Source: Pseudomonas viridiflava | GTDB lineage: Bacteria > Pseudomonadota > Gammaproteobacteria > Pseudomonadales > Pseudomonadaceae | DNA length: 64,000 nt | Reading direction: 5' to 3' | NCBI RefSeq assembly: GCF_900601905.1 | Contig: NZ_UWFA01000175.1 | Span: forward strand, 1-64,000 | In this document: positions 39,001-60,398 of the stretch, in pieces | Layout: each line of letters opens with the position of its first letter | Numbering within the stretch: position 1 is the first letter of the stretch | Position numbers and translations under genes: made by a program | The notes under the pieces: model-generated | The model's database searches: none | What the model saw: only the letters and a program-made list of their open reading frames with translations | Told to the model about the DNA's origin: nothing

Positions 39001-41153
39001 TTACTTCCTCGGCTTAATCCGCGCCGTCGGTTCGGCAATCAGTGGGTCATCCGGCCAGTAGTGCTTGGGGTATCGCCCCTTCAAATCCTTCTTGACCTCG
39101 GCATAGGTGCTGCGCCAGAAATTGGCCAGGTCCTGCGTCACCTGCACCGGGCGGCGGGCGGGCGACAGCAGGTGCAATTTGACGATCTGTCGGCCATTGG
39201 CGATGCGCGGGGTGTCGGCCAGGCCGAACAGTTCTTGCAGGCGCACCGCCAGAATCGGCGGATGCTCGCTGTAATCAAGGCGCACGGACGAACCCGACGG
39301 CACGCTCAAGTGATGCGGCGCCAGCTCGTCAAGCCGCTGTGGCAGCGGCCAGGGCAGCAGGTTATGCAGAATCGAGGACATATCCAGATTGCTGAAATGG
39401 CTGAGCCGCGAGACCTTGCCCAGATACGGCAGCAGCCAGCTTTCAAGGCGCGCAAGCAAACCGGCATTGCTGACATCCGGCCATTCGCTGCTGTCTTTGT
39501 GCTGCAAATCCAGTTCCCGCAGCAATCCGACGCGTGCCTGCCACTGGCGCAGTTCCGGAGTCCACGGCAGCAGTTCGAGGCCTTTACGCCGCACCAGAGC
39601 CAGCAACGCCTGACCTTTGGCAGACTCATCCAGCCCGGTCAGCGGCTCGCGGCTAAGGATCAGCTCGCCCACCTTGCGCTGGCGCTCGGCGCGGAACACG
39701 CCTTCACGCTCATCCCAGTCCAGTTGATCAAGCTGAGTCACTTGCTCGGCCAGCACCGAATCGAACAGCGCCGGATCAAACTCGGCCGCCAGGTAGATCC
39801 GCTCTTCGCGCTGCCCCTGACGGCTGCCCAAGTCGGCGATCACCAGCCAGGGCTGTTTCATCAGCGCATCAACCTCGGCGAACAGCGCCGCCCGGCCATT
39901 GGCCAAACGGTATTCGGCGCCACCGGGTTTGCGCTGCTGGGCGACACGATCGGGATAGGCCAGGGCCAGCAATGCGCCAAGCCAGCGTGGATGGTCCGCG
40001 TCGCTGACCGGTTTGGCCGCCGCGCCACGCAGATAGCCGCGATATTGACGGGACAGCTGTCTGGCCCGTTGCACACCGCCCTGAGCGCCACGTGCCGCAC
40101 GCTCGGTGCCTTCGAGCAAACTCAAGCGGCTATGCAGATCCGCACCGCCACCACGCAGGATGTCACGCTCGCCCAACAGTGCCGCCACGTCACACGCCAG
40201 GCTACCGAGCCCCAGCGCCTGACCGCGCAACAGCAAATGGCCGATACGCGGATGGGCAGGCAGCTCGGCCATGGCCTGACCGTGAGCAGTGAGGCTGTAA
40301 TCTTCACCCGCCGCGCGACTCAACGCACCCAGCCGCACCAGCAAGTCCTGCGCCTGGGCGTAGGCTGCGGCGGGAGGAACATCGAGCCAGACCAGTTCGC
40401 TCGGCGTCACGCCCCAGCGCGCCAGTTGCAGGCCCAGCCCGGCCAGATCGGCCTGAAGAATTTCCGCCGCACCATAGGCCGCGAGTTGTTCATGCTGGGC
40501 TTCGGACCACAGCCGATAGCACACGCCCGGTTCGAGCCGCCCCGCTCGCCCGGCACGCTGCGTGGCGCTGGCCCGGGAGATGCGCTGAGTATCCAGGCGG
40601 GTCATGCCGCTGCCGGGATCAAAACGCGGCACTCGCGCCAGGCCGGCATCAATCACCACCCGCACGCCATCAATAGTCAGGCTGGTTTCGGCGATGTTGG
40701 TCGCCAGCACCACTTTGCGAGTGCCTTTGGGCGCTGGCTCGATGGCAGCGCGCTGGGCGTTCAGGTCCAGTTCGCCATGCAACGGGCACAGCAGGATGTC
40801 GCTGCGGTTGCCGAGCGCTTCGGCCAGTTGCTGATTGACTCGACGAATCTCCGCCTGCCCCGGCAGAAAGACCAACAGGCTGCCGCTCTGATCATTGATT
40901 GCGTCCAGCACCGTCTGCACGACCCGCGGTTCAATGAACTCGCCGGGCTGAAACGGCCTGCCCCACTGCATCTGCACTGGGAACATACGCCCATCACTGC
41001 GCACCACCGGCGCATCGTTCAGAAGACTGGAAAGCCGCTCGCCTTCCAGCGTCGCCGACATCAGCAGAATCTTCAGGGGCTGCTCATCACGAAACAGCGC
41101 CCGACCGTTGAGGCTGAGTGCCAGGGCCAGATCGGCATCCAGACTGCGCTCGT
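39001..41153 (-). pseudogene. hrpB: hrpB, host copy, 5' end lost to island insertion
   Basis: Host-like GC-rich 3' part of the DExH-box helicase gene hrpB. Frame homology runs from ERSLDADLALAL (directly after the DEFH box) to the stop: SAT motif, GVRVVIDAGL, QRAGRAGR and the HrpB C-terminal domain. Residues equivalent to 1-128 of the complete copy at 57174 are missing, including Walker A and the DEFH box. Homology ends at 41153 (GCGCTCGT on the plus strand), where island DNA begins. An internal ATG at 41061 could give a 686-residue product, but it would lack ATPase motifs I and II and be inactive. Confidence 0.88.
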
Positions 41154-41165
41154 AAAAATTGCCAT
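41145..41165. other. Left junction of the genomic island
   Basis: Host hrpB sequence (GCGCTCGT) changes to AT-richer island sequence (AAAAATTGCC) at 41153/41154, exactly within the codons for the conserved DEFH-ERS segment. The first recombinase frame opens only a few bases inside. The matching right junction is not in the window. Confidence 0.75.
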
Positions 41166-43528
41166 TTGCATTATCTTGTCAACTGCACAACCATCAGCCT
41201 CTACAGGTACCCAAGACTACACCAAACCAGGTAGACGCTTTGACAATCATCAAAAAAACCCTATCGCTAGTGAACTACCCTTACCTGGTGATACCTACGG
41301 AAGTGGTAACCGTTATGCAGCGCTGTCGTGCCCTCGTAACACCCCATGCTAGCGAAAATCTTCTGAAGCTCTTTGAAGCTTACTGCCATGTCACAGGTAC
41401 CGCGGTTAGCTACATCATGCTGTCCTCCCCGTCCTTTCGCGGCATCGTGAGGGGATTTTTGGGAGCGCTTGCAGACGAATCCTTCGTCTCAGGAGGCCAG
41501 GAAACGAGAAATCGCTACGCCCGGGATTTCAACTGCCTGCTGAACGAAATGAGGAAAGAGATACCACTTTTGCCCGCTCTCACTGTGGAGGAAAAACTTC
41601 CTACAAATAATGGCCATATATGGGAGGCACAGAAAGGCACCCTTGATACAGAGATATCTCGCTATTGGAATGGTTGGGAGGTGAAAGGCCGAAAAGGTCA
41701 AAACAGCTATCTACCCATATGCTTGTTATGGAATTCTCACGGGAGAGAATTCGCAGAAAATATTTATGATCGCTATGCTCAGCATGTTGAAAAACATCGA
41801 GCCCCTTCGCACTATGAATTTAAGTTTTTTATAACTTACCTTTCGCAGAACGCCAGCAAATGGACCAGTTCGACATTCAGCAACCCTATAAAACTAAACA
41901 ATTTCTTCATTCAAAACATGGTCGCCAGTTTCAAAGCATCACACGCCAGCGGAGGCGACCTAGCTTCAAAAACTATTAGTTACGCCCAATTCACATACCA
42001 GTTGGAAGAAGCTTTTATTCAGCCAGGATTATGGGCGCGGCCATTCGCCGGAATTCTTCCGCACCCGGTAGTCAGGACCACACCGGGACATCGCACCAAC
42101 TTAACGAAACTGCCTGATGGCACGCTTGTGAAGGAAAAGCTTATCACTCCAATACCTCTAGAGCTTACTGACTCCGAAGCAATTGAAATTATTTTCAAAA
42201 CCATCAAATCAGATAATAAGCTGGTGCTAGAATGGGCTAACAGAAAGCTAAACGACCTAGAGCGCGCTCAAACATCAAGAAGAATGCTAGCAGGATCAGG
42301 AACTCCAATATTTGGTGGCAAAACCAACAGAAATAACGTGAAAGAGGTTGGTATAAATGATTTATGCGCAACATTCGAAAAACTAGGTTTACCACATATC
42401 AGGGCAGGAGGAAGACAAGTATACGGAAGATCTGAAGGCTGCTCTCTCGCGGCATTGCTGGCAATTCCAACCGCTCAACATTTTTTTGCATTGCAGTTAC
42501 TTTTAGTCGCCCGCCACCCATGCCTTACTGAATCATTCTTCGACGGCTTCGAACTCTACGATAAAAGAGGAAATCTGTCAGGTCTCCTAGACTTAGATCC
42601 TGACGGCCATCAATTAGTCGGATACAAAGATAGAATGAGCGGGCACCTTAGCGAGCAGGTGATCAAGCTAAACGCAGAGGAAGAAAAGTGGATAAAATTG
42701 ATCATTTCCGCAACCGAGCCACTAAGAAACGAACTTAAGAGCATCGGCGATGATTCTTGGAGGTTCTTATTCCTCCGCTGTACACGCTATATTGGCCTAC
42801 CCAAGCCCGTAGGTCCGATGAAAACTAACAAACGCAATTATGAACGCAACGATCTTCTGGTTGAATTCCTAAGTATCTCAAAAAAAAGCGAAAAAGAGAC
42901 CCGGCAACTACTCTTAAGGCTCTCCGTCACGACATATCGTGCATCCCGCGCTGTGGAGGTATATTTAGACACTAATAGCGTAGAGGCCATGGCAAAAGCA
43001 CTCGGCCATACTTCATACAACTCTTCGCTCCTGAGCAGGTATCTTCCAGAACCAATACTTGCATTTTTTCAAACTCGCTGGATCAGATTATTCCAGCGGG
43101 GAATTATTTGCGAAGCCATGAAGCAAAGCCCGTATTTACTACGGGCCGCCCATTTCAAAACCATGAATGAACTTCATACCTTCTTGGAAAACCATGCGAT
43201 TCGACCTTTGCCTGCACACCTTCAGACACCAGGATCGCAAGCCAAAACCAGCATCAACAATCAGGAAGAGGAACAGCAGATAATTGTGGCGCTTGATACG
43301 GGGATACTCACTGCACTGATATCATTAAAACTAGCTGTTTCTAATGCTCAAGATGTATCAAATTTAAGTGCTAAAGCCCTGTACTGGTCAAGGTTCACAG
43401 AATTAGTAGTTCAAGAAATAGAGTCAGGTTTCAACAGCGACCTCCAGAAATATCTGAGCAAGGCATACCTTCACGCAGACGCTTCCCAGATGGACTTGAT
43501 AATTTATGAAACTACCGCCAGATCTTGA
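41159..43528 (+). CDS. ginA: Large divergent tyrosine recombinase, first gene of the GInt operon
   Basis: Up to 789 residues; the TTG at 41159 is next to the island end, and TTG 41240, GTG 41270 or ATG 41315 are alternative starts. The C-terminal part has a divergent tyrosine-recombinase core: TTYRASRAVEVYL, then KALGHTSYNSSLLSRYL with the GH and final Tyr; the first catalytic Arg is uncertain. It overlaps the next gene by 23 bp. Three large integrases and one small protein in one operon at an island end is the hallmark of GInt (ginABCD) islands and also resembles Tn554-like recombinase sets. I name the genes by operon order; the mapping to published names is inferred. Confidence 0.8.
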   Translation: MPFALSCQLHNHQPLQVPKTTPNQVDALTIIKKTLSLVNYPYLVIPTEVVTVMQRCRALVTPHASENLLKLFEAYCHVTGTAVSYIMLSSPSFRGIVRGFLGALADESFVSGGQETRNRYARDFNCLLNEMRKEIPLLPALTVEEKLPTNNGHIWEAQKGTLDTEISRYWNGWEVKGRKGQNSYLPICLLWNSHGREFAENIYDRYAQHVEKHRAPSHYEFKFFITYLSQNASKWTSSTFSNPIKLNNFFIQNMVASFKASHASGGDLASKTISYAQFTYQLEEAFIQPGLWARPFAGILPHPVVRTTPGHRTNLTKLPDGTLVKEKLITPIPLELTDSEAIEIIFKTIKSDNKLVLEWANRKLNDLERAQTSRRMLAGSGTPIFGGKTNRNNVKEVGINDLCATFEKLGLPHIRAGGRQVYGRSEGCSLAALLAIPTAQHFFALQLLLVARHPCLTESFFDGFELYDKRGNLSGLLDLDPDGHQLVGYKDRMSGHLSEQVIKLNAEEEKWIKLIISATEPLRNELKSIGDDSWRFLFLRCTRYIGLPKPVGPMKTNKRNYERNDLLVEFLSISKKSEKETRQLLLRLSVTTYRASRAVEVYLDTNSVEAMAKALGHTSYNSSLLSRYLPEPILAFFQTRWIRLFQRGIICEAMKQSPYLLRAAHFKTMNELHTFLENHAIRPLPAHLQTPGSQAKTSINNQEEEQQIIVALDTGILTALISLKLAVSNAQDVSNLSAKALYWSRFTELVVQEIESGFNSDLQKYLSKAYLHADASQMDLIIYETTARS

Positions 43529-45605
43529 TTTTTTATCAGTCTTTTTTTTAGATTCTGAAGCTGAGTTTAGGAAGGCAAGTTGGTTGGTAAATGACTTCGA
43601 AAGCGACACTTGGTTAATCAGCTTCGACAAAAAAACACAAAGGGAACTTTGCTGGAAGGTAATTCTAGATGACGGCACCCTTCTAACATCAAGCAAACAC
43701 CGAAAATTGCTAATTGGCCTAAAATTTTATCTGACCTCGAGTACTCGTGACCATTATGGTCACCTTGCAGAAACAAACTCGCAAACGGCAATGCTAAGAC
43801 AATTCTATCGGACATGCCATGTGATAGACCTACTTCTAATAAACAGCAAAAGATTACAGATCTCAGCCTATGGCCTCGAGGGGCTTACCGAAGGTAACCT
43901 TATCGAGATGCTCGAAATAATTTCGTCAAGCTCAACGCTTGAAGATTCGATTTACCAGTGGACCTCCCGACTCCGTAACTATTGTTTGAAAGTATTAGAC
44001 CGTGCGGACCCGGCAGCGATTCTGGAAGTTCTTGACGCAAAGCCGCAGATGTCAATTATCTCAACTGAACAATCCGACGCTGACGACCTTGACATACCTC
44101 ATATTTTAATCCCAAAAGTCCGTGCTGCCCTACATCTGAACAACATCTACCACAAGCAGGTAAAACACGGTCTCCAGCCCAATACAGCTTTGATATGCAA
44201 AGAGCTGTATAAAGACACGCTCTGGGGCAAACATCAATTAAAACCAATAAAATCAATCCTCAGCTATAACGAAAATCTCAGTATGATAGGTCGCGAGTAT
44301 CCTGCCGCGGCAGTAAAAGGAAACTCTGAAGGTCCGATGAAAGGCCCTACTTTTAAATTATATCGCCGCGCCTTATATAATATAGGGATTTTGCATGAGT
44401 TAAATATTCCTGCTCCTTCTATAGATGCGCTTATCAGAGCGGAGCAATTCTCGCCGAATCTACCACCCGTTGGCCGATTTAGGTCGCTGCCGTCTAGCAT
44501 CGTATTTACAGCGCTCCGGCAGGCTATTGAATTTCATTTCGAGTACGGAGAAGAGTTGACCAGGGCATTTTGTCGAATCGCAATTGAATGCAAAAAGCGC
44601 AGCATTTCTCCAAGCGCCTTAACGAGCGAAGAAGTTTGCAATCTGGTCGGAAAAAAATTGCTTGAACTTGGCGTAACCAGACTTTCGCTATCAACACGAC
44701 TCGTAAACTCACATATTTTTGGAGCAAAAATCAAAGGCGAGCCCAGTCGATATTTTGACAGTCTCAGGGCCAACTTTGGACTCTTAGAGTTGATAGCTAT
44801 CTACGTAGGAAGCGTTCAGCTAACCACAGGAATACTCATGGCAAGGCGCGTGAGCGAGCTGTACTCGCTTCCCGCGCACGGCTGCCTAGATTTTTCAGAG
44901 TCATATTTGATATTCAAGAATGCCAAGAGTACCCGACACCTTTTTGGCTACCGCCGAGAAGAAGCTCGCCCCATAGAGCCTATCGCGACTGACATGATCA
45001 AGACCTTGATAAAAATGCAAAAAACCCTTAAAAGGATTGGGTACATAGATGAACTTCAAACACTTTTTTCAACTCCAAACCTCAAAGGCTCAGCCCAACT
45101 AAATAATTCAAATAAATATACGTTCGACCGCAACCTAGACCTATTTTGTGATTATTTCGAAACACCGTTGAACGCACACGGTGAGCGCCATTATCTGAGA
45201 CAACACCAAATAAGGCGTTTTTTCGCGATGCTTTTTTTCTATTGCGGTAGCTTTGCTAAACTCGATACGCTTCAGTGGATGTTAGGCCATACAGACCCCA
45301 CGCACGTTTACCGGTACATCACCGAATCCACCAATGGTATCGTGCTCGCTGGGGCAAAGGCTCACTACGTAGCGGAGCAACTGCATCAAGGCAACATCGA
45401 AAACTTCGTGGCGCTTGCTGACTTTCTCAAGAAAAAATATGGGACTGATAGCTTTGGTCTTATCGACTCGATTGACCTTGAAGATCAGATTCATGAATTA
45501 ATGAATGAGGGCTGGTTAGAGATCGAGCCCGAGTTTTTCACAGATCAAGAGGGTACGAAGTTTAAGGTCGTCGCTCGTCTTATTCTTCCTGGGGAGGCCA
45601 TATGA
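43506..45605 (+). CDS. ginB: Large tyrosine recombinase, second gene of the GInt operon
   Basis: 699 residues with a complete catalytic set in the last 250: Arg in MARRVSELYSLP, HQIRR (His and Arg of the HxxR box), GHTD, and Tyr in HVYRYI. The long N-terminal half has no motif I can name. It overlaps the first gene by 23 bp and its stop overlaps the third (ATGA), so the proteins are probably made in fixed ratio. Codon use is AT-richer than the host genes. Confidence 0.85.
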   Translation: MKLPPDLDFLSVFFLDSEAEFRKASWLVNDFESDTWLISFDKKTQRELCWKVILDDGTLLTSSKHRKLLIGLKFYLTSSTRDHYGHLAETNSQTAMLRQFYRTCHVIDLLLINSKRLQISAYGLEGLTEGNLIEMLEIISSSSTLEDSIYQWTSRLRNYCLKVLDRADPAAILEVLDAKPQMSIISTEQSDADDLDIPHILIPKVRAALHLNNIYHKQVKHGLQPNTALICKELYKDTLWGKHQLKPIKSILSYNENLSMIGREYPAAAVKGNSEGPMKGPTFKLYRRALYNIGILHELNIPAPSIDALIRAEQFSPNLPPVGRFRSLPSSIVFTALRQAIEFHFEYGEELTRAFCRIAIECKKRSISPSALTSEEVCNLVGKKLLELGVTRLSLSTRLVNSHIFGAKIKGEPSRYFDSLRANFGLLELIAIYVGSVQLTTGILMARRVSELYSLPAHGCLDFSESYLIFKNAKSTRHLFGYRREEARPIEPIATDMIKTLIKMQKTLKRIGYIDELQTLFSTPNLKGSAQLNNSNKYTFDRNLDLFCDYFETPLNAHGERHYLRQHQIRRFFAMLFFYCGSFAKLDTLQWMLGHTDPTHVYRYITESTNGIVLAGAKAHYVAEQLHQGNIENFVALADFLKKKYGTDSFGLIDSIDLEDQIHELMNEGWLEIEPEFFTDQEGTKFKVVARLILPGEAI

Positions 45606-46213
45606 AGAAAACTCCAGCTTTAAACGGCGTAAAAACGCTGCAGGCGTTGCTCACACACATATGTAGACACCCTATCAAATTCACGAAGGACGTTGAGCTA
45701 AGAACCGCTCTAAAAAGTCAGGCAGGTATGGCCTCTCTCAGTCGGGCTGTTGAACTTGAGACGGGGGAGTCATTGACGACGCTCCCGATGAGCTTAAATA
45801 CTTTGAAGACATACGCCAATGAAAACTTGAGCGGTGGCTTTCGGGCACTCAATGACCTGAGAATTGGTGCCTTGGAAAAACTGGATCTCGTAGACAAACG
45901 AGAAAAACATACAAACAAACGAACTAAATCAGGTCTAAACAGGAAAGTTGAACAGCTGGAACGAGAACTTGAGATGCAACGGCAGACCAATATGATACTC
46001 ATGCGTGCACTTTCCGAGTCTATGCATCAGTTGACCAGCATCGGGGACGCCTCCGACGAAAAGTTGAGGGGTAAGAGAATCCAAAACGCCCTCCAGACAC
46101 TTCGCGCCATCGTCAGCATGGCTAGGCCTCCCTTCAACTTTATCCCGTCTACTACAGAGCCAGCAATGCTATCGTTCGAAATAGCCAACATAGATGATTA
46201 CCGGCGGAAATGA
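45602..46213 (+). CDS. ginC: Small coiled-coil protein of the GInt operon
   Basis: 203 residues. A long predicted coiled coil (about 95-145: KRTKSGLNRKVEQLEREL onward, with heptad Leu/Met) lies between a mixed N terminus and a short tail. Similar small accessory proteins accompany recombinase trios (TnpC of Tn554 is comparable). It probably assists synapsis or directionality. ATGA overlap with the previous gene. Confidence 0.78.
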   Translation: MKKTPALNGVKTLQALLTHICRHPIKFTKDVELRTALKSQAGMASLSRAVELETGESLTTLPMSLNTLKTYANENLSGGFRALNDLRIGALEKLDLVDKREKHTNKRTKSGLNRKVEQLERELEMQRQTNMILMRALSESMHQLTSIGDASDEKLRGKRIQNALQTLRAIVSMARPPFNFIPSTTEPAMLSFEIANIDDYRRK

Positions 46214-46217
46214 AATC

Positions 46218-47651
46218 ATGTCTGACCAAAGTACGCGTAAACTGCACCAGTTAATGGGCGATTTCAGGACGTTTAGCCACTTCTCTGTCGACAGGGTGAG
46301 CACTCGCGACGCCACTAACATTCCATTTATGATCTGGCCGAATGGCTCACCCTGCTTAATTGGTAATTTGTATATACTTTCCCTACTGGATCGTTCAGGA
46401 CGAGGCCAGCAGGGTCTTTCTCGAAAAGGAGATAAGGGTGGTTCGATGGGCGATTACGCGTCAAAGCTGGGCCAGTTACTCAGGCGCTGCTATCGGGACG
46501 GTATAGATCCGATAAACCTGACTGACGGCCGATTTACTGATTACATTGAAGAAATCCGAAAAGAGCCGTCCAACTTCAATCCATCTAAACCCAGAAAAAC
46601 CGAAACATCTGTGATCGCGACCGGCAAGGTGTGGTTGAGCTTTTTAGGTTTCGTGGGTAAATTTTATGGATATAATGATTTTGTCTCTACACACGGTACC
46701 ATAAGAGCAAGAGAAGAAAAATTTGTGAAGGCTACACGTACCGGAAAAAAAATTAGTAATACTTCCTTGACTCACCACTCCTTCGGCAAGCCCCATAGGG
46801 AGCACCGTCGAGTACCAATAACTAACGAACAAATTCAGCTTCTAAAGTTAGCAGTTAGGAAGCTCACTGTACCAGCTGCCGTCAAGGTTCGAATGGCCTG
46901 CTTAATTGACCTTCTTACGGACACCGGCGCCAGGCGAACAGAGCTAGCGAACCTGAAAGTTTCCGACGTGCTCTGTGCCATGGAGATGAAACATCCACTT
47001 CTTCGCCTTGAAACCCTAAAGAGAGAGGAAGGTGCAGAGCGTTACGTTCCAGTCTTTCTCACCGCACTGAAGAAACTTCGCCAATACATCGAAATTGAAC
47101 GTCGCAAAATCATGCGAAGCGTTTACAAAGGAGGCAAAGATCATGGATATTTTTTTGTGTCTTCCGCGACCGGCAAGCCTCTCACAAGTTCTGTAATATC
47201 CAATGAAATTTTGAAGCTTCGCAGGCTCGCCGGTATCAAGTCCCAAGTAACTCCTCATATGTTTCGTCACGCGTTTATCACAAACCTATTCGTACTATTC
47301 ATTCAGCGGCATCAACTCTCAAACCCTGACGAGTTTCGGCAAGCTTTGCTGGACAGTCGGACTTTCACTGCAGAAATCACCAGCTGGACGGGTCACCTCG
47401 AACCTATGGCGGTGGAGTACTATATAAACCTAGCCTTCCGCGACTTATCCATCTACGGCGAGACCGTGGGATCAGTGCATTTGGTCAGGGCGATCGACAA
47501 GTACTTTTCTGAAGAGAATGAGTTGCTCTCCATGCTTGAAGAAGGCATGCCAGTGGAGGAATACAAGAATCAACTACTGTCCCTAAGAGACATGGCACAG
47601 AAGGACTTTGCGATAGCCAAGGAGCGTGGGCCAATGCTAGTCAACAAGTAA
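46218..47651 (+). CDS. ginD: Tyrosine recombinase, fourth gene of the GInt operon
   Basis: About 477 residues from the ATG at 46218 (five bases after the previous stop; an ATG at 46194 would overlap it). A canonical phage-integrase catalytic domain is visible: Arg in TGARRTELANL, HMFRH, TGHLEP and Tyr in VEYYINLAF. It is the most standard of the three recombinases. No terminator is evident after it, and cargo DNA follows. Confidence 0.87.
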   Translation: MSDQSTRKLHQLMGDFRTFSHFSVDRVSTRDATNIPFMIWPNGSPCLIGNLYILSLLDRSGRGQQGLSRKGDKGGSMGDYASKLGQLLRRCYRDGIDPINLTDGRFTDYIEEIRKEPSNFNPSKPRKTETSVIATGKVWLSFLGFVGKFYGYNDFVSTHGTIRAREEKFVKATRTGKKISNTSLTHHSFGKPHREHRRVPITNEQIQLLKLAVRKLTVPAAVKVRMACLIDLLTDTGARRTELANLKVSDVLCAMEMKHPLLRLETLKREEGAERYVPVFLTALKKLRQYIEIERRKIMRSVYKGGKDHGYFFVSSATGKPLTSSVISNEILKLRRLAGIKSQVTPHMFRHAFITNLFVLFIQRHQLSNPDEFRQALLDSRTFTAEITSWTGHLEPMAVEYYINLAFRDLSIYGETVGSVHLVRAIDKYFSEENELLSMLEEGMPVEEYKNQLLSLRDMAQKDFAIAKERGPMLVNK

Positions 47652-48054
47652 AGGCCATGCTCTAAAGAGCAACCCAGGTCCCTACCATCGATTTTGCTAC
47701 CTTTTAATCGTCTGGCAAAAGCTGGTTCGAGTATTTGCTTTTCAGCTTTAAGTTCACTCCTAGTGATAAGCTCTTGGCAACCAAGAAGGTTATTACGATG
47801 CTCATTAGTTCGCTGGTAGTCCTTAACGATGCAGTCTGACAACGATCCAGACAGGCGGGGCCTAAAAAGGGTCCTGCATCTGTTTCACGAATGTCACTCG
47901 CCGGAGAGTCTGGACCACCGCCCGGCTTATTTACTGCCGAGCGCCGTGTGCATGGCAACTAGGCTTGTGATGAATGCTAAACAATGATCCAGGAAACTGT
48001 CCCGGCGCAAATTATTGATAAGGGGATCCCGACTGCCGGTCTAATGCCGACGTT
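47652..48054. other. Non-coding stretch after the recombinase operon
   Basis: 403 bp with no gene I can support on either strand. Composition is mixed, with no clear repeats or hairpins. It probably marks the boundary between the recombinase module and the cargo. Confidence 0.5.
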
Positions 48055-48546
48055 ATGACCGCCAAGTTTGCCGACCACCTGCCGTTCAACCTGTCCCCAC
48101 ACATGATTACGTTGCAGAACGTCATTAAAGGGCTGATCAGCTTACGCAAAGTGCCGAGTGACGAAGCTGTCGAAAGGGGTCAGGGGTTACTGGCCTTGGT
48201 TGGGTTATCCGAGAAGACAGCTACCCCGGCCAAACTATCCGGTGGACAAAAGCGGTGCGTCGCCATTGCTCGTGGCCTGGCAATGGATCCGGAAATAATT
48301 TTCTTCGACGAGCCGACATCAGCGCTGGACCTGGAACAGAGGGAAGAAGTGCTGAGCGTTATGCTTGAACTGGCCAACGCTGGCATGACCATGCTGGCAG
48401 TGACCCACAAATTGCGCTTCGCCCGTGAAGCAGCTGATCGCATCGTATTTGTGAAGAAAGGTGTAATCGTTAAAGACTGCGTTACTGATGAGTTCTTTGG
48501 AAATGGCAGCGGAGAAATGATTCAGCAGTTTCTTCATCGTTATTGA
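48055..48546 (+). pseudogene. Amino-acid ABC transporter ATPase (GlnQ-like), 5'-truncated
   Basis: Homology to polar amino-acid importer ATPases starts at FNLSPHMITLQNV, past the point where Walker A should be. It then covers the signature (LSGGQKRCVAIARGLA), Walker B (IIFFDEPTSALD) and switch His (AVTHKL) to a natural stop. About 85 N-terminal residues including the P-loop are missing, and no permease genes accompany it. It is a non-functional relic on the island. Confidence 0.8.
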
Positions 48547-48563
48547 TAAAGGAAAACGAATTG

Positions 48564-48670
48564 TCACCCGTCGGCACCGCCTGCCGATCAGGGTGGCAGC
48601 CGCATTGAGCCATTTGCCTTCTTAGGGCTCAGACGGCGACCGCTCTAACGGTCTGAATCGCCTCTCCCCG
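48564..48670. repeat. 105-bp hairpin repeat, copy 1
   Basis: Starts with CACCCGTCGGCACCGCC, which folds as a hairpin with TGCCGA-TYA-GGGTG, followed by a conserved CGCATTGAGCC block and TGAATCGCCT. About 80% identical by eye to copy 2 at 51204-51309, in the same orientation. Confidence 0.75.
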
Positions 48671-48799
48671 CGATCCCAGTAAGCGCAAATCTACACCAGA
48701 GAAAACCGGATGCAATGCAGCCACCGCACATGGCTGCAATCGGCCAGAAGCGGTCATTGATGGACTTTCGCTCTCCTCGATTACGTGGGCTCAGACGAG

Positions 48800-48899
48800 T
48801 TCGGTGAAAGCGCATATGCTCCACTACGACTACCGTTTTTACTTTGTTGAGGTCTTCAACTACAAGAGCCGAAGGGCCCACATTGCTGTGGATAGCTGA
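48800..48899 (+). pseudogene. Possible IS3-type transposase C-terminal remnant
   Basis: A 28-codon open stretch from 48813 reads HYDYRFYFVEVFNYKSRRAH then a short tail and stop at 48897. The FVEVFNY-KSRRAH pattern resembles the end of IS3-family orfB transposases. The match is too short to assign a family, and the rest of the element is gone. Confidence 0.35.
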
Positions 48900-48930
48900 G
48901 GCGAGCAACCCGCTCAGCATCCCGACCAAA

Positions 48931-48962
48931 GGTGTCCAGATAGACCTCGTCTATCTGGACAC
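48931..48962. repeat. Perfect inverted repeat GTGTCCAGATAGAC
   Basis: Arms GTGTCCAGATAGAC and GTCTATCTGGACAC are separated by CTC and one more base. It lies about 55 bp past the stop of the minus-strand fusion gene and could be its terminator (no U tract) or an insertion-sequence end. Confidence 0.6.
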
Positions 48963-49017
48963 CATGGCTAACCTCCCAATGGAACTCAGGACGCTCTGGA
49001 CACGATGCAAGCCAGCA

Positions 49018-50865
49018 TTACTGAGCGCGGTGGAACGGGAATCCTCCGAACAACACCCCTCCTACCAACAACGCCAGGCTCGCAAGCACTGCCCACTTCA
49101 GGGCAAATTTCTGGTGGTCACCGAGATCTACCTTGGCAAGCGCGACCAAAAGATAGAGCGAGGGCACCAATGGGCTCAGCAAATGCACGGGCTGGCCAAC
49201 GATCGATGCGCGGGCAATTTCCAGTGTTGTAAACCCGTAAGTGGTAGCCGTTTGAGCCAGGACCGGCAGAATGCCGAAGTAGAAAGCATCGTTCGACATG
49301 AAGAAAGTAAACGGCAAGCTCACCAACGCTGTAAATACCGCGAGGTATGGCCCGAAGCTGTCAGGTATGACATGCAGCAAGCTTTGCGCCATCGCATCGA
49401 CCATGCCGGTGCCCGAAAGAATGCCAGTGAAAATACCAGCGGCAAAAATCACGGACGTTACGGCCAATACGTTCGCGGAGTGTGAAGCAATGCGCTCCTT
49501 CTGTTGCTGCAGATGTGGGTAATTCAAAGTCACGCCGATACCGAAAGCGACCATGAATAGCACTTGAATAGGCATGAGCCCAGCCGCGCCAGCAGGTTTA
49601 GCAGTGACTGGGTACAACTCTTCAAGCTGACCCTTGCTCTTGGCGTAGCCGCCGCTCTTGGCATCCTGAACCATGACCTCATCGAACCGGCGCGCAAGCC
49701 CGGTGAGGTCAACGCGATCCTGAGGACGCTTGGGGCCGGATACACACGGAACAATCTGATCGAGGTTGATCGTGATCACGGTCGAGTAATCAACACTGCC
49801 AGCAGCAGGTGTGCCGAACATGTCCTGGGCTTCAAAGTACTTGCGGATCAGCTCAACCTGCTCAGCACTACGCCCGGTCTGGCGGTAGTAGTCGAGCGTC
49901 TTGTCGTCGACCGGGAAGAAGCCAGTCGTTGCGCCATACTCAGGCGCCATGTTGGCGATAGTTGCACGGTCAGTCGCACTCAGGGAGCTTGCTCCCTCGC
50001 CAAAGAACTCGACAAGCTTGCCGACCACTTTGGCAGCACGCAGCGTCTGGGTGATCTGCAGCACAGCATCTGTCGCCGTGACGCCAGGACGCAGACTGCC
50101 TTTGAGCTCAACCCCGACAACGTCCGGCATCAACATGTAAACAGGCTGACCGAGCATGCCGGCTTCGGCTTCGATACCACCCACACCCCAACCCAGCACG
50201 CCGATGCCATTGATCATCGTCGTGTGGCTATCGGTGCCCACGAGCGTATCGGGGTATACGACTGAGTCCTTCTCGATCACACCTTGAGCCAGATACTCCA
50301 GATTGATCTGGTGGCAGATACCGATGCCTGGCGGAATGACCTTGAATGTCTCGAACGCTTGCATGCCCCACTTCATCAGCTCATAGCGTTCACGGTTACG
50401 CTGGAATTCGACCTCCATGTTCTTGCGAAGCGCGCCAGGCACGTTCGAAAACTCTGTCTGTACAGAATGATCTACCACCATGTGAACGGGTACGAGCGGC
50501 TCGATAGCTTTCGGGTTACCACCACGTTTCTTTGCCTGGCTGCGCATGGCGGCCAGGTCGGTCAATAACGGGATGCCCGTGAAGTCCTGAAGAAGGACGC
50601 GACCGACTACAAACGGAATTTCCCGTTCCCTGCTGCCGTGTGGCTGCCAGTTTGCGAGATCTTCGATATGAGATTGGAGCACCTTGCTGCCATCGCAGTT
50701 GCGCAATACCGACTCCAACAGGATCCGAATCACTACAGGAAGACGGCTCAAGTTCGGATAGGCCGCTGTCTGGAGCGCAGGCAATGAATAGTAGTGGTGT
50801 TCACGGCCATCGGACGTCTTGAACGACCGCAGACTTGTTTTGGAAAGCTTGTTGGCGTCGGTCAT
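49018..50865 (-). CDS. In-frame fusion of aconitase N-terminus and CitMHS citrate transporter C-terminus
   Basis: 615 residues from the ATG at 50865. Residues 1 to about 415 match AcnA/IRP-type aconitase ([13 protein letters not shown] region, [45 protein letters not shown]). From about 430 on the sequence is the last part of a CitMHS-family citrate transporter ([47 protein letters not shown]) with about five membrane spans. All three aconitase Fe-S cysteines lie beyond the fusion point and are absent, and the transporter lacks its first half, so neither activity is expected. An internal deletion between neighbouring genes is the simplest origin. The frame is intact, so a product may still be made. 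Confidence 0.8.
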
Positions 50866-50900
50866 GTGGTTCTCTCTAGGGCAACTCATCAGGTGTGCGT

Positions 50901-51203
50901 TTAGAACTGGAACAATTCGGTCGGAGTGTCCACCAGCACTTTTTTTCGGTCAGCGACATCCGGCAGCCAGCGCTCCAGATGCGCCAGCTGGGTTGAATTA
51001 TGCTGAGTGCTTTCATGTTGGATAAAAGGCCAGTCGCTGGCCCAAAGCAGGCGTTCAGGGCCGGAGGCCGATGACAGCAACGGAGCTGCGATGCTCACGG
51101 CGTTCAGTTCAGCTCTGTCTGTGGCGTGGATGTCGAGTTTGTCGATAAAAGACTCGTACGCTGTATCGGACGCAGGTGTGAGTCTGCGGCTTTCGATGAA
51201 GGG
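50901..51203 (-). pseudogene. Amidohydrolase (PDC hydrolase-like), 5'-truncated
   Basis: About 100 residues matching the C-terminal end of TIM-barrel amidohydrolases of the 2-pyrone-4,6-dicarboxylate hydrolase type (GPERLLWASDWPFIQHE with the metal Asp). The homology is cut at its 5' end exactly where the 105-bp repeat begins (51204). It lies upstream of the aconitase-transporter fusion on the same strand, which suggests a former citrate or tricarboxylate operon. Confidence 0.7.
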
Positions 51204-51309
51204 CACCCGTCGGCACCGCCTGCCGATTAGGGTGACTGTCGCATTGAGCCGTTTGCATTGTCAGGACTCACGCGACAACCGCTCCCATGTTTTGAATCGC
51301 CTTTACCTG
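51204..51309. repeat. 105-bp hairpin repeat, copy 2
   Basis: Same orientation and layout as copy 1 at 48564: CACCCGTCGGCACCGCC and matching arm, CGCATTGAGCC block, TTGAATCGCCT. It truncates the amidohydrolase gene on its left and borders a broken response-regulator gene on its right. Confidence 0.75.
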
Positions 51310-51344
51310 TAATACCGCCGAATGCTGCAGATCGATCCGCTAGA

Positions 51345-51640
51345 CCTAGTGAATCGCTGCACGAATAGAGTCCGGCGGCTGCTCGTAAAGGACACCCCAG
51401 AACATTCCGAGGTCTGCCACCGCCTGCATCATTTCCTTCAATGCAATTGGCTTGATCACGAACGCATTCACGCCGAATTCATAGGCCCGAGCCAGATTAG
51501 AATTCATCTATGAGCTGGTGAGCATGACTATAGGGATGCTTTGAAGGAGTGGGTCAGCGCGGACAGCCTGCAAGACATCCAGCCCGTCGACCTTGGGCAA
51601 TTACAAATCGAGCAGAACGATCTCCGGGTTACCTTCAGGG
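51345..51640 (-). pseudogene. Response-regulator receiver domain with stop codons
   Basis: On the minus strand the translation reads EIVLLDL-stop-LPKVDGLDVLQAVRADP, then PIVMLTSS-stop-MNSNLARAYEFGVNAFVIKPI, which is a CheY/Rcp1-type receiver domain with the phospho-accepting region, the Thr/Ser position and KPI Lys. In-frame stops at 51601-51603 (TAA) and 51508-51510 (TAG) kill it. Confidence 0.75.
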
Positions 51641-51720
51641 CGATCAGACCAGCACGTAGCGTACATTGCCGCCTCGAGCATGACGCCCAGGGTTTCTTCC
51701 TGGATACCTTGGGGCAAGAT

Positions 51721-52105
51721 TAAGCCAAGTTCCTGATCCGGTCGGTAAACTCACTGACCTGCTCGGGCGACAGACAGTTCAAGTTTCCGAAGGTCTCCAG
51801 GTGCTGGATCATGGCGTCCAGGCTACCGGGTTGGCCCGCCACGATTCGTCGGCAGGTCTTCTCCAGAATCAACCGGGCCAGCTGCGGGTTTTCGATGTTG
51901 GACGCATCAAACGCCAGGGCGCGATCGACGTGGCCAAGTCGCCTAGCTCACGGGCGGTGCGTTGCAGTGCTCGCAAGGCGTTGAGTTGCCGGGCAGTGAT
52001 GGGTAACGACACGACCTCCTGGAGAGCCGGTACGACGGCGAACCCTGCGTATTCGTTTCGAGCGCGAGCGCACCTGTAGACTCGAACTAAAGCGGCAAAC
52101 GTCAT
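51721..52105 (-). pseudogene. Frameshifted gene fragment next to the response regulator
   Basis: Minus-strand reading starts MTFAALVRVYRCA then EYAGFAVVPALQEVVSLP; after about residue 58 the coding signal shifts frame and continues as RALAFDASNIENPQLARLIL to ETFGNLNCLSPEQVSEF and a stop at 51721. A +1 frameshift therefore splits one ancestral gene. The family is not recognised; its position suggests a two-component partner, but no kinase motifs are seen. Confidence 0.55.
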
Positions 52106-52387
52106 GCGTTTGGGTCGATTTATTCGTAGCCTACAGGTGCATGTTCCACCCTCGCTGACAGCTACCTGCCAACCGTTACCATTATCGGTTCTCTACGTTC
52201 TTCCGGGTTCGGGGTGGCTTAGTGACCTAAGGATAGCTTTAATCACATCGCGCTTACAGCGTCCTCAGCATTAGGAAATGCGAGAGAACAAAGTTTAGCA
52301 TTAGGCCAGACTAAATCCGACTGCGAAAAATAGCTTATACTGGTCAACCAAATCCCCGCATATAACAGGACAAAAAGATATAAACCT

Positions 52388-53296
52388 ATGAAAACAGTAA
52401 TATCCTCAATAGAGTCTACCGTTGATAGTTTCATTAAGCTTGCTACCGGCATTTTCAAACTAAGCATCAGCGTGGGAAGCATCTGCGTAGTAATGTACGC
52501 GCTGAAAATAGGCCATTTCCCTCGAGGACTTGCATTGGGAGATGGTCTTTTATTTCTCATAGCAGCTGCATGCTTTGGGTTCGTATACGTAATGTTCGCT
52601 ATATGCATGGGCTCTATAGGAATTGTCTTTTCCCCCGTCATTCGATTGGTTATTCACGGCTTAACATGGTTAGCATGCAAGGTAACTAAAAGCCAAAAGG
52701 ATATTAGATATCAACTAGCACCATTCCACTGGATATCGATTCCTTTTGCATGCATAGGGGGCTTGTTAATTTTCTGGATGGGTAAACGTGATCCCATAAC
52801 CTATATAAACCTGCTGCCACTCCCCGTAGCTATATATCTATTCTACTCTATCGCACGCTCCGCCGGGGCTGACTACCGGCGAGAAGACCGATTGGCTCGC
52901 GCGACTATCGTCACGACAGAATCAGAAAGGCTTACGCACGCAAATAGCGCCGACGGTCACAAGACTGCGTATTTCGTTAGTGCATCTATTCTCATTATTC
53001 TTCCATTACTATTTGGAGGTGTAACCGGACAATTGGCCGATGGCGCAATGCGCCTTGCGCAGGTGCGTGTTGAAAAAGCGGTGATTTATGTGAAAGTACC
53101 GTTTAGCACCCTTCTTCCGGCAGAGTTGTATGCTGCAGATCTTCAGACCCCTGAAGGCTACCAGGCGTTCCGAGATGTCACTGTGTTGTTCCAAGGATTC
53201 GGCACTTCGACAGCCATTGGTTTCAGGGACAGTGATCGCAGCCGCCAACTGGATCTGCCTAATGAGAGTCTTATCGTAGAGAAAGAGCGAAAGTAG
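52388..53296 (+). CDS. Island membrane protein of unknown function
   Basis: 302 residues with about six hydrophobic spans (around 20-40, 48-68, 70-90, 117-133, 138-153, 195-215) and a C-terminal soluble tail of about 85 residues. I recognise no family. Codon use is AT-rich, unlike the host. A TATACT box at about 52343-52348 could be its -10. It is the first intact gene after the relic zone. It is probably cargo, perhaps part of the neighbouring defence-like genes, but no link is demonstrated. Confidence 0.65.
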   Translation: MKTVISSIESTVDSFIKLATGIFKLSISVGSICVVMYALKIGHFPRGLALGDGLLFLIAAACFGFVYVMFAICMGSIGIVFSPVIRLVIHGLTWLACKVTKSQKDIRYQLAPFHWISIPFACIGGLLIFWMGKRDPITYINLLPLPVAIYLFYSIARSAGADYRREDRLARATIVTTESERLTHANSADGHKTAYFVSASILIILPLLFGGVTGQLADGAMRLAQVRVEKAVIYVKVPFSTLLPAELYAADLQTPEGYQAFRDVTVLFQGFGTSTAIGFRDSDRSRQLDLPNESLIVEKERK

Positions 53297-53318
53297 CCCA
53301 TCTAGCGACGATGGGTGA

Positions 53319-53975
53319 TCAGCCGTGCATCACCTCGCCGTCTACCTCTTCGAGCGCTGCAACCAGAACGCGCTCGGGGGCAATTTGCAATAAATCTTTG
53401 GGGCGTCTGCCACCAAGAAAGTTATTAGGGGAGGCGAACCAAAAAGCCATCCCCCAGCCATCATTTTGGGCTTTCAACACTGAAATTACTGCTTGTAAAC
53501 AGACGAGCGGTTGATGGGTAGCATCATCAAAAGCATAAGCAGGAATGTAATTTATACCCTCATAAGACAGTACGAAAATGCGATCAGTCCGCAGCCAATC
53601 GCGCAAGTTCCTTTCATCAAGGTCTTCTGCTACGTGCTGGGAGTTTTCTGCGAAGGGAATCAAATCTCCGCTGCGTATAATTTCAGCTTTCGCGTTGCCC
53701 TTCATTCGCAGCTGCCTGAGGAAGGTTGAGGAATCTGGTGGGGAAAGGACTTGGGCCTCTGAAATCTCCTCCACCATTTCAGCTCTGGCAGCATGCAGGC
53801 CCTTTTCAAACTCCCGATTGAAAAGCTCCAGACAACGTAAATATGTGGCTACGGTCAAGGAAGAGTCCGCGCTGATGTCGATCAAAATTTGGAGCGGCTG
53901 CCCCCCAGGCGATGTGCCACCGGAGTCCTCAATTGTGTTCTTGTGAACTGTCAGTATTGCGAATGGTGATGCCAT
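53319..53975 (-). CDS. Xre/MbcA/ParS-domain-like protein
   Basis: 218 residues from the ATG at 53975 (GAGG site). The C-terminal 90 residues (INYIPAYAFDD, WGMAFWFASPNNFLGGRRPKDLL, APERVLVAA) resemble the DUF2384 / MbcA-ParS-Xre toxin-binding domain. The N-terminal part (about 1-110) is unassigned, and no RES-type toxin gene is adjacent. It sits 171 bp downstream of a second ParS-like gene on the same strand and may be an antitoxin-like or adaptor protein. Confidence 0.6.
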   Translation of the reverse strand: MASPFAILTVHKNTIEDSGGTSPGGQPLQILIDISADSSLTVATYLRCLELFNREFEKGLHAARAEMVEEISEAQVLSPPDSSTFLRQLRMKGNAKAEIIRSGDLIPFAENSQHVAEDLDERNLRDWLRTDRIFVLSYEGINYIPAYAFDDATHQPLVCLQAVISVLKAQNDGWGMAFWFASPNNFLGGRRPKDLLQIAPERVLVAALEEVDGEVMHG

Positions 53976-54146
53976 GACTACCTCATGATTGATCGCTCTA
54001 TTGCATGGATGGAGCTTGAGCAAGCTAACCACCTAAAGTGCAACGGCTAGTCCCGCTAATTTCGCATGGCAGCCACCGCACCTATCGTGGAGATTTTCCT
54101 ACTAGCCGGACTTCGAGCACTCACAATAGGAGTAGCGGTGCAGGGT

Positions 54147-54590
54147 TCAGAATCCATCAGCAACCTGCATTAGTAACTCCTCTACTTGCCACGTACCTAC
54201 CGAGGTTGACAGCATGGCGGCAGGGCATTTACCGGAAAGACGTTCTTGAGGTTTTTTTAGCCAACACTTTGATTTATCGAAGCTGTCGAACAGGGCCGCT
54301 GCCATCGCCATTATGTGAACGAAACGATATAGACGATCGCTTTCTCCAACGGATAGTCGCTGACCGCGGGCCAACCTCCACCGGAGCGTTCGGAGAGGAA
54401 TAATCAGGTCCCGTGACTGTGGATCGAGTATCCCGAGACCTCTGAGCGTTTTGATTACAGAGGCCGGAAAACCTATCTCTATCAGTCCGTGAACATCTTG
54501 ATTTGTAGAGTGGATAGGTATCTGCAGCATGAGTTCCAGCTTGGCGCGATATGCACCATAGGCGCCCGTACGCATAACGGCTAGCAACAT
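54147..54590 (-). CDS. Xre/ParS-type antitoxin-like protein (DUF2384)
   Basis: 147 residues. RTLRWRLARGQRLSVGESDRLYRF (about 67-90) and the following MAAALF, CWLKKPQERLSGKCPAAML, GTWQVEELLMQV match the Xre/MbcA/ParS antitoxin family of RES and related type II toxin-antitoxin systems. The usual GGRTPLELL is degenerate (SGKCPAAML). An AAAGGTG site precedes the ATG. No RES toxin is present nearby, so it is an orphan or has an unusual partner. Confidence 0.75.
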   Translation of the reverse strand: MLLAVMRTGAYGAYRAKLELMLQIPIHSTNQDVHGLIEIGFPASVIKTLRGLGILDPQSRDLIIPLRTLRWRLARGQRLSVGESDRLYRFVHIMAMAAALFDSFDKSKCWLKKPQERLSGKCPAAMLSTSVGTWQVEELLMQVADGF

Positions 54591-54791
54591 GATTCACCTT
54601 TATTAAAGTCGACATCGACAGGTGTAGCCGATAAATGTCGTTTGGAAATGTCAGCTCCGTGAGCGAGTTACACTGTTAGCACCATCATGACTGATCAGCT
54701 AACAGCTCCAACTCCAGTGAGCAAAAAACATAGCAAATCTTCTGAGGAACTTGTTGTCCAAAATTACCCGGTGCTATGAACTGTTCAGGGT

Positions 54792-56779: not shown

Positions 56780-56807
56780 AACAGGCACCTAGTCTTCCGC
56801 AAAAAAT

Positions 56808-56840
56808 ACGGATTATAGTCCGTGGCCGATCCTTCCGCAA
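56808..56840 (-). promoter_or_regulatory. Promoter and operator of the helicase operon
   Basis: Minus strand: TTGCGG (56835-56840), 17-bp spacer, TATAAT (56812-56817). The -10 box is wrapped by the dyad ACGGA-N6-TCCGT (56808-56823), and a direct repeat CTTCCGCAAA (56794-56803 and 56832-56841) brackets the promoter. These are probable binding sites of the adjacent Xre repressor. Confidence 0.65.
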
Positions 56841-56852
56841 ACGCCCGATAGT

Positions 56853-56877
56853 GCTGCCTCAAGCGGGTTGAGGCAGC
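56853..56877 (+). promoter_or_regulatory. Hairpin covering the ribosome site of the Xre gene
   Basis: A perfect 10-bp inverted repeat GCTGCCTCAA / TTGAGGCAGC with a 5-base loop ends one base before the ATG at 56879. The only Shine-Dalgarno-like GAGG (56870-56873) is inside the 3' arm, so the hairpin would hide it in mRNA; as DNA it is also a good operator dyad. Confidence 0.65.
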
Positions 56878-56878
56878 T

Positions 56879-57091: not shown

Positions 57092-57173
57092 GTCATGGGA
57101 TAGAGCACAACGGTCCAAATATCGACACATAAATGTTGGTTGCGCTTCTGCTACTGATCTGCGTCACCCAGCA

Positions 57174-60265: not shown

Positions 60266-60398
60266 AGCGAGTATTTATACTGGTTTAATGCGTTACTTCC
60301 ACTATCTTCAAATCAGGCATGAATGGATTATCTTTCTGCCGTCCCAAATCTTTCACATTTTACGCAGCCGCTAATGTTTTATGTGATTTGATAGGCAG

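What the first reader, a model, noticed from the sequence alone, without database searches (positions are those of the whole stretch)
41145..47651. GInt-type island inserted in the DEFH motif of host hrpB
A four-gene operon of three tyrosine recombinases and one coiled-coil protein begins within about 10 bp of the point where host hrpB homology stops, between the codons for DEFH and ERS. The gene set fits GInt islands, and a target inside a universally conserved helicase motif would give a portable integration site in many bacteria.
Basis: partly seen in the sequence, partly recalled or inferred. Interest (0 to 1): 0.75.

Follow-up and report, generated by a model that had tools for sequence, protein, structure and literature searches.

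The report
Island that breaks and replaces hrpB
A mobile DNA island in Pseudomonas cuts a conserved helicase gene in two and brings its own spare copy of that gene, in which the insertion site has been altered, so it looks like a natural version of the engineered "break it and rescue it" gene drives.

Summary
The reported junction is real. Host hrpB is split at DEFH|ERS by a 48.6-kb island (contig 41151-89712) with 12-bp terminal inverted repeats and a four-gene recombinase operon. The main feature was missed: the island carries its own full-length hrpB (57174-59699), where DEFHERS reads DEFHLRN.

In 398 Pseudomonas genomes, 87 were checked for hrpB fragments; 21 have hrpB split there, and all 21 carry a full-length hrpB (20 intact). 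The ordinary site occurs in 354 of 398 genomes but in none of the 21. Glu129, 55 of 55 in other genera, is lost in 20 of 20 island copies aligned; no other of 84 invariant columns behaves so. Recoded copies lie in at least three parts of the tree. Against: a plasmid-borne copy keeps the Glu, and 14 unsplit genomes have a Glu-less hrpB as their only one.

Best reading: an island that replaces its target with an integrase-resistant copy. Target replacement is known (Vibrio recA element; SE-6283 in bcp); hrpB as target and the repeated site loss seem new. Gene order matches the recA element, not GInts. Immunity is inferred.

The parts
39001..41150 (-). C-terminal part of the host hrpB, cut at DEFH|ERS (codon 129/130 to the stop)
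   Evidence: tblastn with the island hrpB: contig 39007-41160, 70%, query 126-839; HrpB_C and Helicase_C domains; junction read
41151..41156 (.). 6-nt spacer at the left junction, island-borne (TTTACG on the hrpB strand; host site TTCACG)
   Evidence: comparison of 20 islands
41159..41170 (.). left terminal inverted repeat TTGCCATTTGCA; its mirror image is at the right end next to contig 89712
41240..43528 (+). Q1, probable tyrosine-recombinase-like protein (762 aa from TTG 41240; listed as 789 aa from 41159); K490, R594, H617, Y628 conserved, first Arg not seen
   Evidence: structure inconclusive
43506..45605 (+). Q2, large tyrosine recombinase with conserved R-K-H-R-H-Y
45602..46213 (+). Q3, small protein with a weak coiled-coil match
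46194..47651 (+). Q4, ordinary tyrosine recombinase (PF00589)
57174..59699 (-). rescue hrpB: full-length island-borne HrpB, 70% identical to the host fragment; likely start ATG 59693 behind GGAG
59307..59327 (-). altered target site in the rescue hrpB: DEFHLRN in place of DEFHERS
41151..64000 (.). part of the island inside the window; it goes on to contig 89712 (48.6 kb in all), where the host hrpB 5' fragment (codons 3-128, contig 89714-90091, minus strand) follows
   Evidence: G+C 52.3% against 61.3% and 60.0% in the flanks

Best explanation
This is a site-specific integrative island whose recombinase operon inserts it at one point of hrpB, inside motif II (DEFH|ERS). Insertion breaks the host gene, and the island supplies a complete HrpB from its own cargo. 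The spare gene has lost the target: the Glu codon that straddles the spacer and the right arm is replaced (CTN, TTG, ATT or TCN), and the Ser codon two further on is usually changed too. Glu has only GAA and GAG, so the first two bases cannot be changed silently; losing the site costs a residue that is otherwise kept in all other genera examined. Expected effects (inferred): the rescue gene is not hit by further copies of the island and does not recombine with the island's own ends. Later, homologous recombination between the leftover host 5' fragment and the rescue gene can remove the island and leave a chimeric, site-less hrpB at the native locus. Shown: insertion point, 6-nt spacer, inverted repeats, co-occurrence, orientation, loss of the site, purifying selection, chimeric genes.
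For: Window genome: one full-length hrpB, on the island. 21 genomes have hrpB split at this point (20, G197); all 21 carry a full-length hrpB on the strand of the host fragment it shares a contig with (20 intact; G358 has a frameshift, its 5' piece reads DEYHLRN). All 56 genomes with any Q1 match were examined for fragments: no split hrpB without a full copy among them. Ordinary-site DNA pattern: 354 of 398 genomes, 0 of the 21. With columns judged only on 55 HrpBs of other genera, Glu129 (55 of 55) is the only one of 84 invariant columns changed in 20 of 20 aligned chromosomal island copies; next are 9 and 7 of 20. All three bases of the codon differ from the island's own host site in 19 of 19 islands, the Ser codon in 18 of 19. 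On a tree without the site columns at least 3 changes are needed and a single clade is rejected (AU p=0.002, group named after seeing the tree). Q1 and rescue trees conflict on starred branches, so the pairing persists while partners are swapped. Rescue omega 0.06 (35 of 190 pairs usable). Control: related genes inserted in an antiporter gene bring no copy of it (2 of 2 genomes). Chimeric native genes, e.g. L068: first 110 residues 0.98 host-like against 0.89, next window 0.73 against 0.97.
Against: A plasmid-borne relative (pPA1609-475) carries an hrpB that keeps the Glu; its changes lie to the left (F to M, F to Y), and F to Y alone does not block insertion, since a used target in G085 is DEYH. 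Glu-less hrpB is the only hrpB in 14 of 398 genomes with no split gene (7, 7) and in 16 of 42 remaining Pseudomonas rows of the alignment, so a site-less allele may have been captured rather than shaped on the island, and E129 is not strictly needed. It is a protein change, so a functional reason is not excluded. G063 has the quartet and a Glu-less hrpB side by side but an intact ordinary hrpB elsewhere. The plasmid insertion lies in a terD-family gene, so target choice is not absolute. No experiment shows immunity, rescue or mobility.
Confidence: 0.76

Rival explanations
1. Captured resistance allele: hosts first evolved a site-less hrpB (or had one by chance) and the island picked it up as cargo; the altered site is host defence that the island borrowed, not something shaped on the island.
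For: 14 of 398 genomes have a Glu-less hrpB as their only one; G143, G314 and G003 branch next to the rest of the main Glu-less clade and are not clear chimeras; many site-less copies sit beside the usual neighbour fieF.
Against: At least two further Glu-less groups (G242; G064/G254/G063) lie elsewhere on the tree; L068, L073, L074, L077, L079, L085 and L092 have a host-like 5' end and an island-like remainder, which points from island to host.
Confidence: 0.38
2. Canonical GInt, with hrpB as one more target.
For: Recombinase-like genes plus a small gene at one end, 6-nt spacer, imperfect repeats, large variable cargo.
Against: Gene order differs (small gene third); no BLASTP similarity below E=0.01 to the GInt-ordered quartet at hrpB codon 820, and by profile only Q4 resembles its first gene (hhalign E 5e-5); order and sizes match the recA element.
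Confidence: 0.3
3. Ordinary xenologous cargo: the extra hrpB is a chance passenger and the E-to-L change is drift or adaptation of a divergent helicase.
For: GInt-type islands collect varied cargo (PMC5385486); the rescue tree is not congruent with the recombinase tree.
Against: 21 of 21 split-hrpB genomes have it, in one orientation; the only always-lost invariant residue is the one at the insertion point; strong purifying selection.
Confidence: 0.07
4. Native duplicate: the two hrpB copies are an old paralogue pair and the island is younger and unrelated to it.
For: Both are 70% alike within one genus.
Against: In the 17 islands with both halves on one contig the full copy lies between the halves; in the window it has island-like G+C (53.6% against 64.7%); its nearest relatives are other island copies and site-less genes.
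Confidence: 0.02

Closest known systems
recA mobile element (RME) of Vibrio cholerae S24 (PMC4405046, passages read) and of V. parahaemolyticus 090-96 (PMC4334540, passages with Table 3 read)
   Same: Island of about 30 kb splits a housekeeping gene internally and carries a divergent full copy; in 090-96 the four genes beside the truncated recA are 650-674-243-435 codons by the printed coordinates, the same order as here, the halves overlap by 6 bp, and the full recA lies about 175 bp behind the truncated one, like 8 of 19 islands here.
   Different: Target is recA, genus Vibrio; loss of the site in the carried copy is not mentioned in the passages I read; homology of the recombinases could not be tested.
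SE-6283/Tn6283 (strand-biased circularizing element) in bcp (PMC9345347, PMC5991714, passages read)
   Same: Inserts into bcp and carries a bcp homologue 'as if it complements'; 6-bp spacer; multi-gene recombinase operon.
   Different: Gene order intA-CDS2(tfp)-intB-CDS4(srap); no statement on loss of the site in the carried bcp in the passages read.
GInts, ginABCD (PMC5385486: Results, Discussion and figure legends read)
   Same: Three recombinase-like genes and a small gene at one end, 6-nt staggered cuts, imperfect att repeats, variable cargo, common in Pseudomonas.
   Different: Small gene last; targets named there are an ABC transporter 5' end, ssb and the end of a ribonucleotide reductase gene; no carried target gene mentioned in the sections read.
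Tn552-II with tgl (PMC12486829, passages read)
   Same: Tn554-like transposon carrying a 'target-gene-like' gene that 'may provide a rescue mechanism'.
   Different: The carried tgl keeps an att copy, the opposite of what is seen here; Staphylococcus.
Engineered home-and-rescue gene drive, HomeR (PMC7968924, search listing and start of abstract only)
   Same: Element built against an essential gene, with a rescue; that the rescue is recoded is recalled, with the word 'recoded' counted in the listing.
   Different: Synthetic, CRISPR/Cas9-based, in Drosophila.

Membership tests
GInt | three recombinase-like genes plus one small gene, operon at one end | tested here: met
   (Q1 as recombinase by motif only)
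GInt | gene order ginA-ginB-ginC-ginD with the small gene last | tested here: not met
   order is 789-699-203-485, small gene third, in the window, in relatives and on a Providencia plasmid
GInt | sequence homology to GinABCD of reference GInts | not testable with these tools
   no reference sequence reached; a GInt-ordered quartet found here (S1-S4) matches only Q4/S1
GInt | 6-nt staggered exchange and imperfect att repeats | tested here: met
   6-nt spacer pattern read in 20 islands
recA mobile element type (target-replacing island) | internal insertion in a housekeeping gene plus divergent full copy on the island | tested here: met
   21 of 21 split genomes have a full copy; in 17 islands both halves and the copy are on one contig
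recA mobile element type (target-replacing island) | large-large-small-integrase gene order beside the 3' fragment | tested here: met
   compared with printed coordinates only
recA mobile element type (target-replacing island) | homology of the recombinases | not testable with these tools
   no Vibrio RME sequence reached; the class search found only the window genome (1 of 369)
SE (strand-biased circularizing element) | order intA-tfp-intB-srap | tested here: not met
   against PMC9345347 and PMC10214605
SE (strand-biased circularizing element) | strand-biased circle without empty site | not testable with these tools
   needs PCR
Gamma-mobile-trio | GmtY family (NF040693) over cut-off | tested here: not met
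   0 of 2 genomes over cut-off and no match in the island; no Gmt family among the NCBIfam hits of the quartet

The most novel reading that the evidence does not exclude
A natural home-and-rescue system: islands repeatedly capture hrpB from different Pseudomonas, each time lose the integrase site at the price of an invariant residue, swap these rescue genes among distant recombinase lineages, and leave site-less, often chimeric hrpB alleles behind in the population, which are then immune to the whole class. A second, different quartet inserting at hrpB codon 820 draws on the same pool of rescue genes.
Probability: 0.52. Interest if true: 0.82.

Novelty: new variant of a known kind. Interest (0 to 1): 0.72.

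Why it matters
Target-replacing islands are known from a few cases (recA, bcp). Here the pattern is seen in 21 genomes of one genus, with losses of the site in several separate lines, which turns an anecdote into a rule that can be tested: an element that damages a costly gene should bring a copy its own recombinase cannot hit. It gives a natural counterpart to engineered rescue drives, including the resistant alleles they are feared to leave behind, and offers a reason why an otherwise invariant Glu of a DEAH helicase is missing in some Pseudomonas. It also marks hrpB as a hotspot that carries copper-resistance and TIR-type genes, and warns that hrpB phylogenies in Pseudomonas are mixed.

Tried and rejected
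Structure of Q1 (3-row alignment) gave pLDDT 50.7 and no PDB match at E<=0.001; not used. Pfam and NCBIfam do not name Q1 or Q2 and give Q3 only weak hits. CP109682.1, a 'plasmid' with hrpB, looks like a chromosomal piece and was set aside. Second-site recoding (codon 822; Tyr lost in 6 of 7 site-2 rescues) is left as a lead: Phe is the residue in 54 of 54 other-genus HrpBs counted and in 3 of 22 native Pseudomonas copies. Co-inheritance of one rescue gene per recombinase line was rejected (Mantel r=0.16, p=0.03, conflicting starred branches). Gamma-mobile-trio rejected.

My first conservation count picked its 80 ordinary copies by their motif, so '80 of 80 Glu' there is circular; it was redone with 55 other-genus copies chosen by organism and with a DNA pattern over 398 genomes. 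The same check raised the number of unsplit genomes with only a Glu-less hrpB from 7 to 14, so I moved the captured-allele rival from 0.35 to 0.38 and the novel case from 0.55 to 0.52.

The 44 of 398 genomes without the ordinary site: 21 split; 14 with a Glu-less hrpB only (G003, G026, G037, G091, G141, G143, G256, G275, G310, G314, G339, G344, G356, G396); G394 (host 5' fragment ending in an island end, plus a Glu-less copy, no 3' fragment); G082 (host hrpB with a short frameshift at the site, site-2-like gene and DEFHLRT copy); G076 (Glu-less copy and fragments, draft); G283 (ordinary DEFHERS that the pattern missed); G205 (5' part off the contig); G080, G191, G317, G365 (broken, lost or incomplete). 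G317 shows only codons 4-132, so a split without a seen rescue cannot be excluded there. 87 genomes were examined for fragments (37+12+13+25), the other 311 only by pattern and best match. Rows left out: L088 from the AU test; G358 and G197 from the rescue alignments; the plasmid copy from the 20-row set; G234 from the distances; 155 of 190 rescue pairs from omega (dS outside 0.05-1.5). Searches listed no paper on an island in hrpB or on site loss in a carried target gene; I saw only the rows listed, and only open-licence PMC papers were searched.
Full report
1. The junction. The window is bases 1-64000 of a 105.8-kb contig; relatives and neighbours are those of Pseudomonas. hrpB (minus strand) is cut in two: its 3' part lies at 39001-41150, codons 3-128 at contig 89714-90091, and what lies between is foreign: G+C 52.3% against 61.3% and 60.0% in the flanks. 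Read along hrpB, the 5' fragment ends GATGAGTTTCACG and runs into TTTTGCCATTTGCA; the 3' fragment is preceded by ..TGCAAATGGCAATTTTTACGAGCGCAG. So the island has 12-bp terminal inverted repeats (TTGCCATTTGCA) and a 6-nt spacer: the right end keeps the host spacer TTCACG, the left end has TTTACG brought by the island. The island is 41151-89712, 48.6 kb.

2. The operon. Four overlapping genes follow the left end. The first probably starts at 41240, where relatives begin with a similar MTIxK peptide. Q4 is an ordinary tyrosine recombinase, Q2 has a complete conserved catalytic set, Q1 keeps K, R, H and Y but no first Arg that I could see, Q3 is small. Q1's fold could not be settled.

3. The rescue gene. 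At 57174-59699, on the strand of the host gene, lies a complete hrpB (841 codons as listed; HrpB_C, connector and helicase domains), 70% identical to the host part. It is the only full-length hrpB in the genome; the remaining match is 37% identical over half the length. Its motif II region reads DEFHLRN instead of DEFHERS.

4. Recurrence. Q1 was searched in 398 Pseudomonas genomes, 56 with a match. All hrpB pieces were then listed in 87 genomes, among them all 56. In 21, window included, hrpB is split at codon 126-130; 20 have Q1 beside the 3' part and G197 a decayed piece of it. All 21 also have a full-length hrpB, 20 in one frame and one (G358) with a frameshift, each on the strand of the host fragment with which it shares a contig. 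In 25 further genomes with weaker Q1 matches hrpB is single and unsplit in all 25. Island sizes on one contig are 33.8-109.5 kb, median 46.0 (17 islands). In 8 of 19 measured cases the rescue begins 120-302 bp behind the 5' fragment, where it could use the host promoter (inference). In the window's island it lies 30 kb away; one promoter-like match lies near its start, not evidence in itself.

5. The lost site. A DNA pattern for the ordinary site (DE[F/Y]HERxLDA) occurs in 354 of 398 genomes and in 0 of the 21 split ones, although each of these has a full hrpB. In 55 HrpBs of other genera, chosen by organism, 84 columns are invariant. Twenty intact chromosomal island copies (19 from split genes plus G063) differ in all 20 rows at exactly one of these, Glu129 (17 L, 2 S, 1 I); next are L381 (9 of 20) and D825 (7 of 20). 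It is also lost in 7 of 7 copies next to the second quartet and in 16 of 42 other Pseudomonas rows, which are mostly unsplit genes discussed below. Against the empty site rebuilt from each island's own flanks, all three bases of that codon differ in 19 of 19 and the Ser codon in 18 of 19. A plasmid-borne copy is the exception: Glu kept, changes further left.

6. More than one origin. On a tree without the site columns, Glu-less copies form a main clade (38 rows), a separate clade with G064, G254 (two copies) and G063, and a single row (G242, DEFHSRN) inside a group of ordinary genes. Three changes are needed at least; one clade is rejected (p=0.002; the group was named after seeing the tree). 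The plasmid copy stands next to P. aeruginosa PA7, a further capture. Q1 and rescue trees conflict on starred branches: G234's Q1 groups with G255, G216 and others (100), its rescue with the window's (98-99).

7. Selection. Rescue omega is 0.059 (35 of 190 pairs usable) against 0.087 for ordinary copies (152 of 153). In X. citri an hrpB deletion is viable but forms less biofilm and adheres less (PMC4804567 abstract). In the sample G191 has only a short hrpB remnant. Relatives of Q1 and Q2 inserted in a Na+/H+ antiporter gene (G005, G050) come without a second copy of that gene, searched with its C-terminal 133 residues, so a carried copy is not automatic.

8. Movement. pPA1609-475, a P. aeruginosa megaplasmid, has the same quartet (Q4 78%) and a full hrpB at the two ends of a ~43-kb insert in a terD-family gene. 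117 plasmid records match each flank, and in records such as NZ_CP027170.1 the two flank matches are contiguous with a 7-base overlap. So hrpB travels with the element even when it is not in hrpB, and a plasmid can be the vehicle (inference).

9. After-effects and the main rival. 14 of 398 genomes have a Glu-less hrpB as the only one and no split gene. Where flanks were read, many such copies sit beside the usual neighbour fieF. Some are chimeras: first 110 residues host-like, rest island-like (L068, L073, L074, L077, L079, L085, L092). L088 and G394 still have the host 5' fragment and a full Glu-less copy but no 3' fragment. G082 has a short frameshift exactly at the site, like an imperfect excision (inference). 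The simplest account is recombination between the 5' fragment and the rescue gene. Others (G003, G143, G314) look native, so capture of a pre-existing site-less allele is the main rival.

10. A second site. In seven distinct loci a different quartet (506-629-681-142 codons in L159, the GInt order) sits after hrpB codon 820 and is followed at once by a Glu-less hrpB. G216 and G254 carry both elements.

11. Known relatives. The recA mobile elements of Vibrio are the closest kind: internal insertion, divergent full copy, and in V. parahaemolyticus the same gene order and a 6-bp overlap. SE-6283 carries bcp into bcp. Tn552-II carries a target-like gene that keeps its att. In the passages read none of these reports loss of the site in the carried copy. 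Ten searches listed no paper on islands in hrpB.

12. Verdict. Immunity and rescue remain to be shown.

Noticed in passing
L159 4605-10481 (also L160, L161, L162, L170, L172, L094): A second, GInt-ordered recombinase quartet inserted after hrpB codon 820 and followed directly by a Glu-less hrpB; Tyr822 near that site is changed in 6 of 7 of these rescue genes, but Phe is common in other genera.
   Followed up: partly
L214 (NZ_CP090650.1 139000-188500): P. aeruginosa megaplasmid with the same quartet and a full hrpB in a terD-family gene; related plasmids are empty there. Its hrpB keeps ERS but has IMDEYH.
   Followed up: partly
L272 (G082), site read: Host hrpB with a short frameshifting change exactly at the DEFH site and no island there, like a scar of imperfect excision; a Glu-less hrpB lies just downstream.
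   Followed up: partly
L218 15768-16169 and L219 11426-11821: Relatives of the quartet inserted inside a CPA1-type Na+/H+ antiporter gene; no second copy of that gene in either genome.
   Followed up: partly
window 49018-50889: One open frame with an aconitase N-terminal part fused to the end of a citrate transporter (CitMHS); looks like a deletion fusion.
   Followed up: partly
window 61298-61564 and contig 69106-70119 (L007 5106-6119): A truncated and a full copy of what looks like the same tyrosine recombinase gene flank the multicopper oxidase and other copper genes, as if the copper module were a nested element.
   Followed up: no
contig 84439-89238 (L008 439-5238): Four TIR/ThsB-like genes and a SLOG gene at the right end of the island; a candidate defence cluster.
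   Followed up: partly
window 53319-56788: Helicase (ResIII) with three small neighbours; only weak hits in the defence library (best PbeA).
   Followed up: partly
L253 (Providencia plasmid pPROV073-3): A quartet of the same order (786-707-192-468 codons) just before an umuD gene, with a class A beta-lactamase gene close by.
   Followed up: no
L068, L085, L092 and others: hrpB genes beside fieF that are host-like in the first 110 residues and island-like after that; hrpB is a poor species marker in Pseudomonas.
   Followed up: partly
L081 2400-9800: About 7 kb of other genes between fieF and an ordinary hrpB in P. caricapapayae; another possible insertion near this locus.
   Followed up: no
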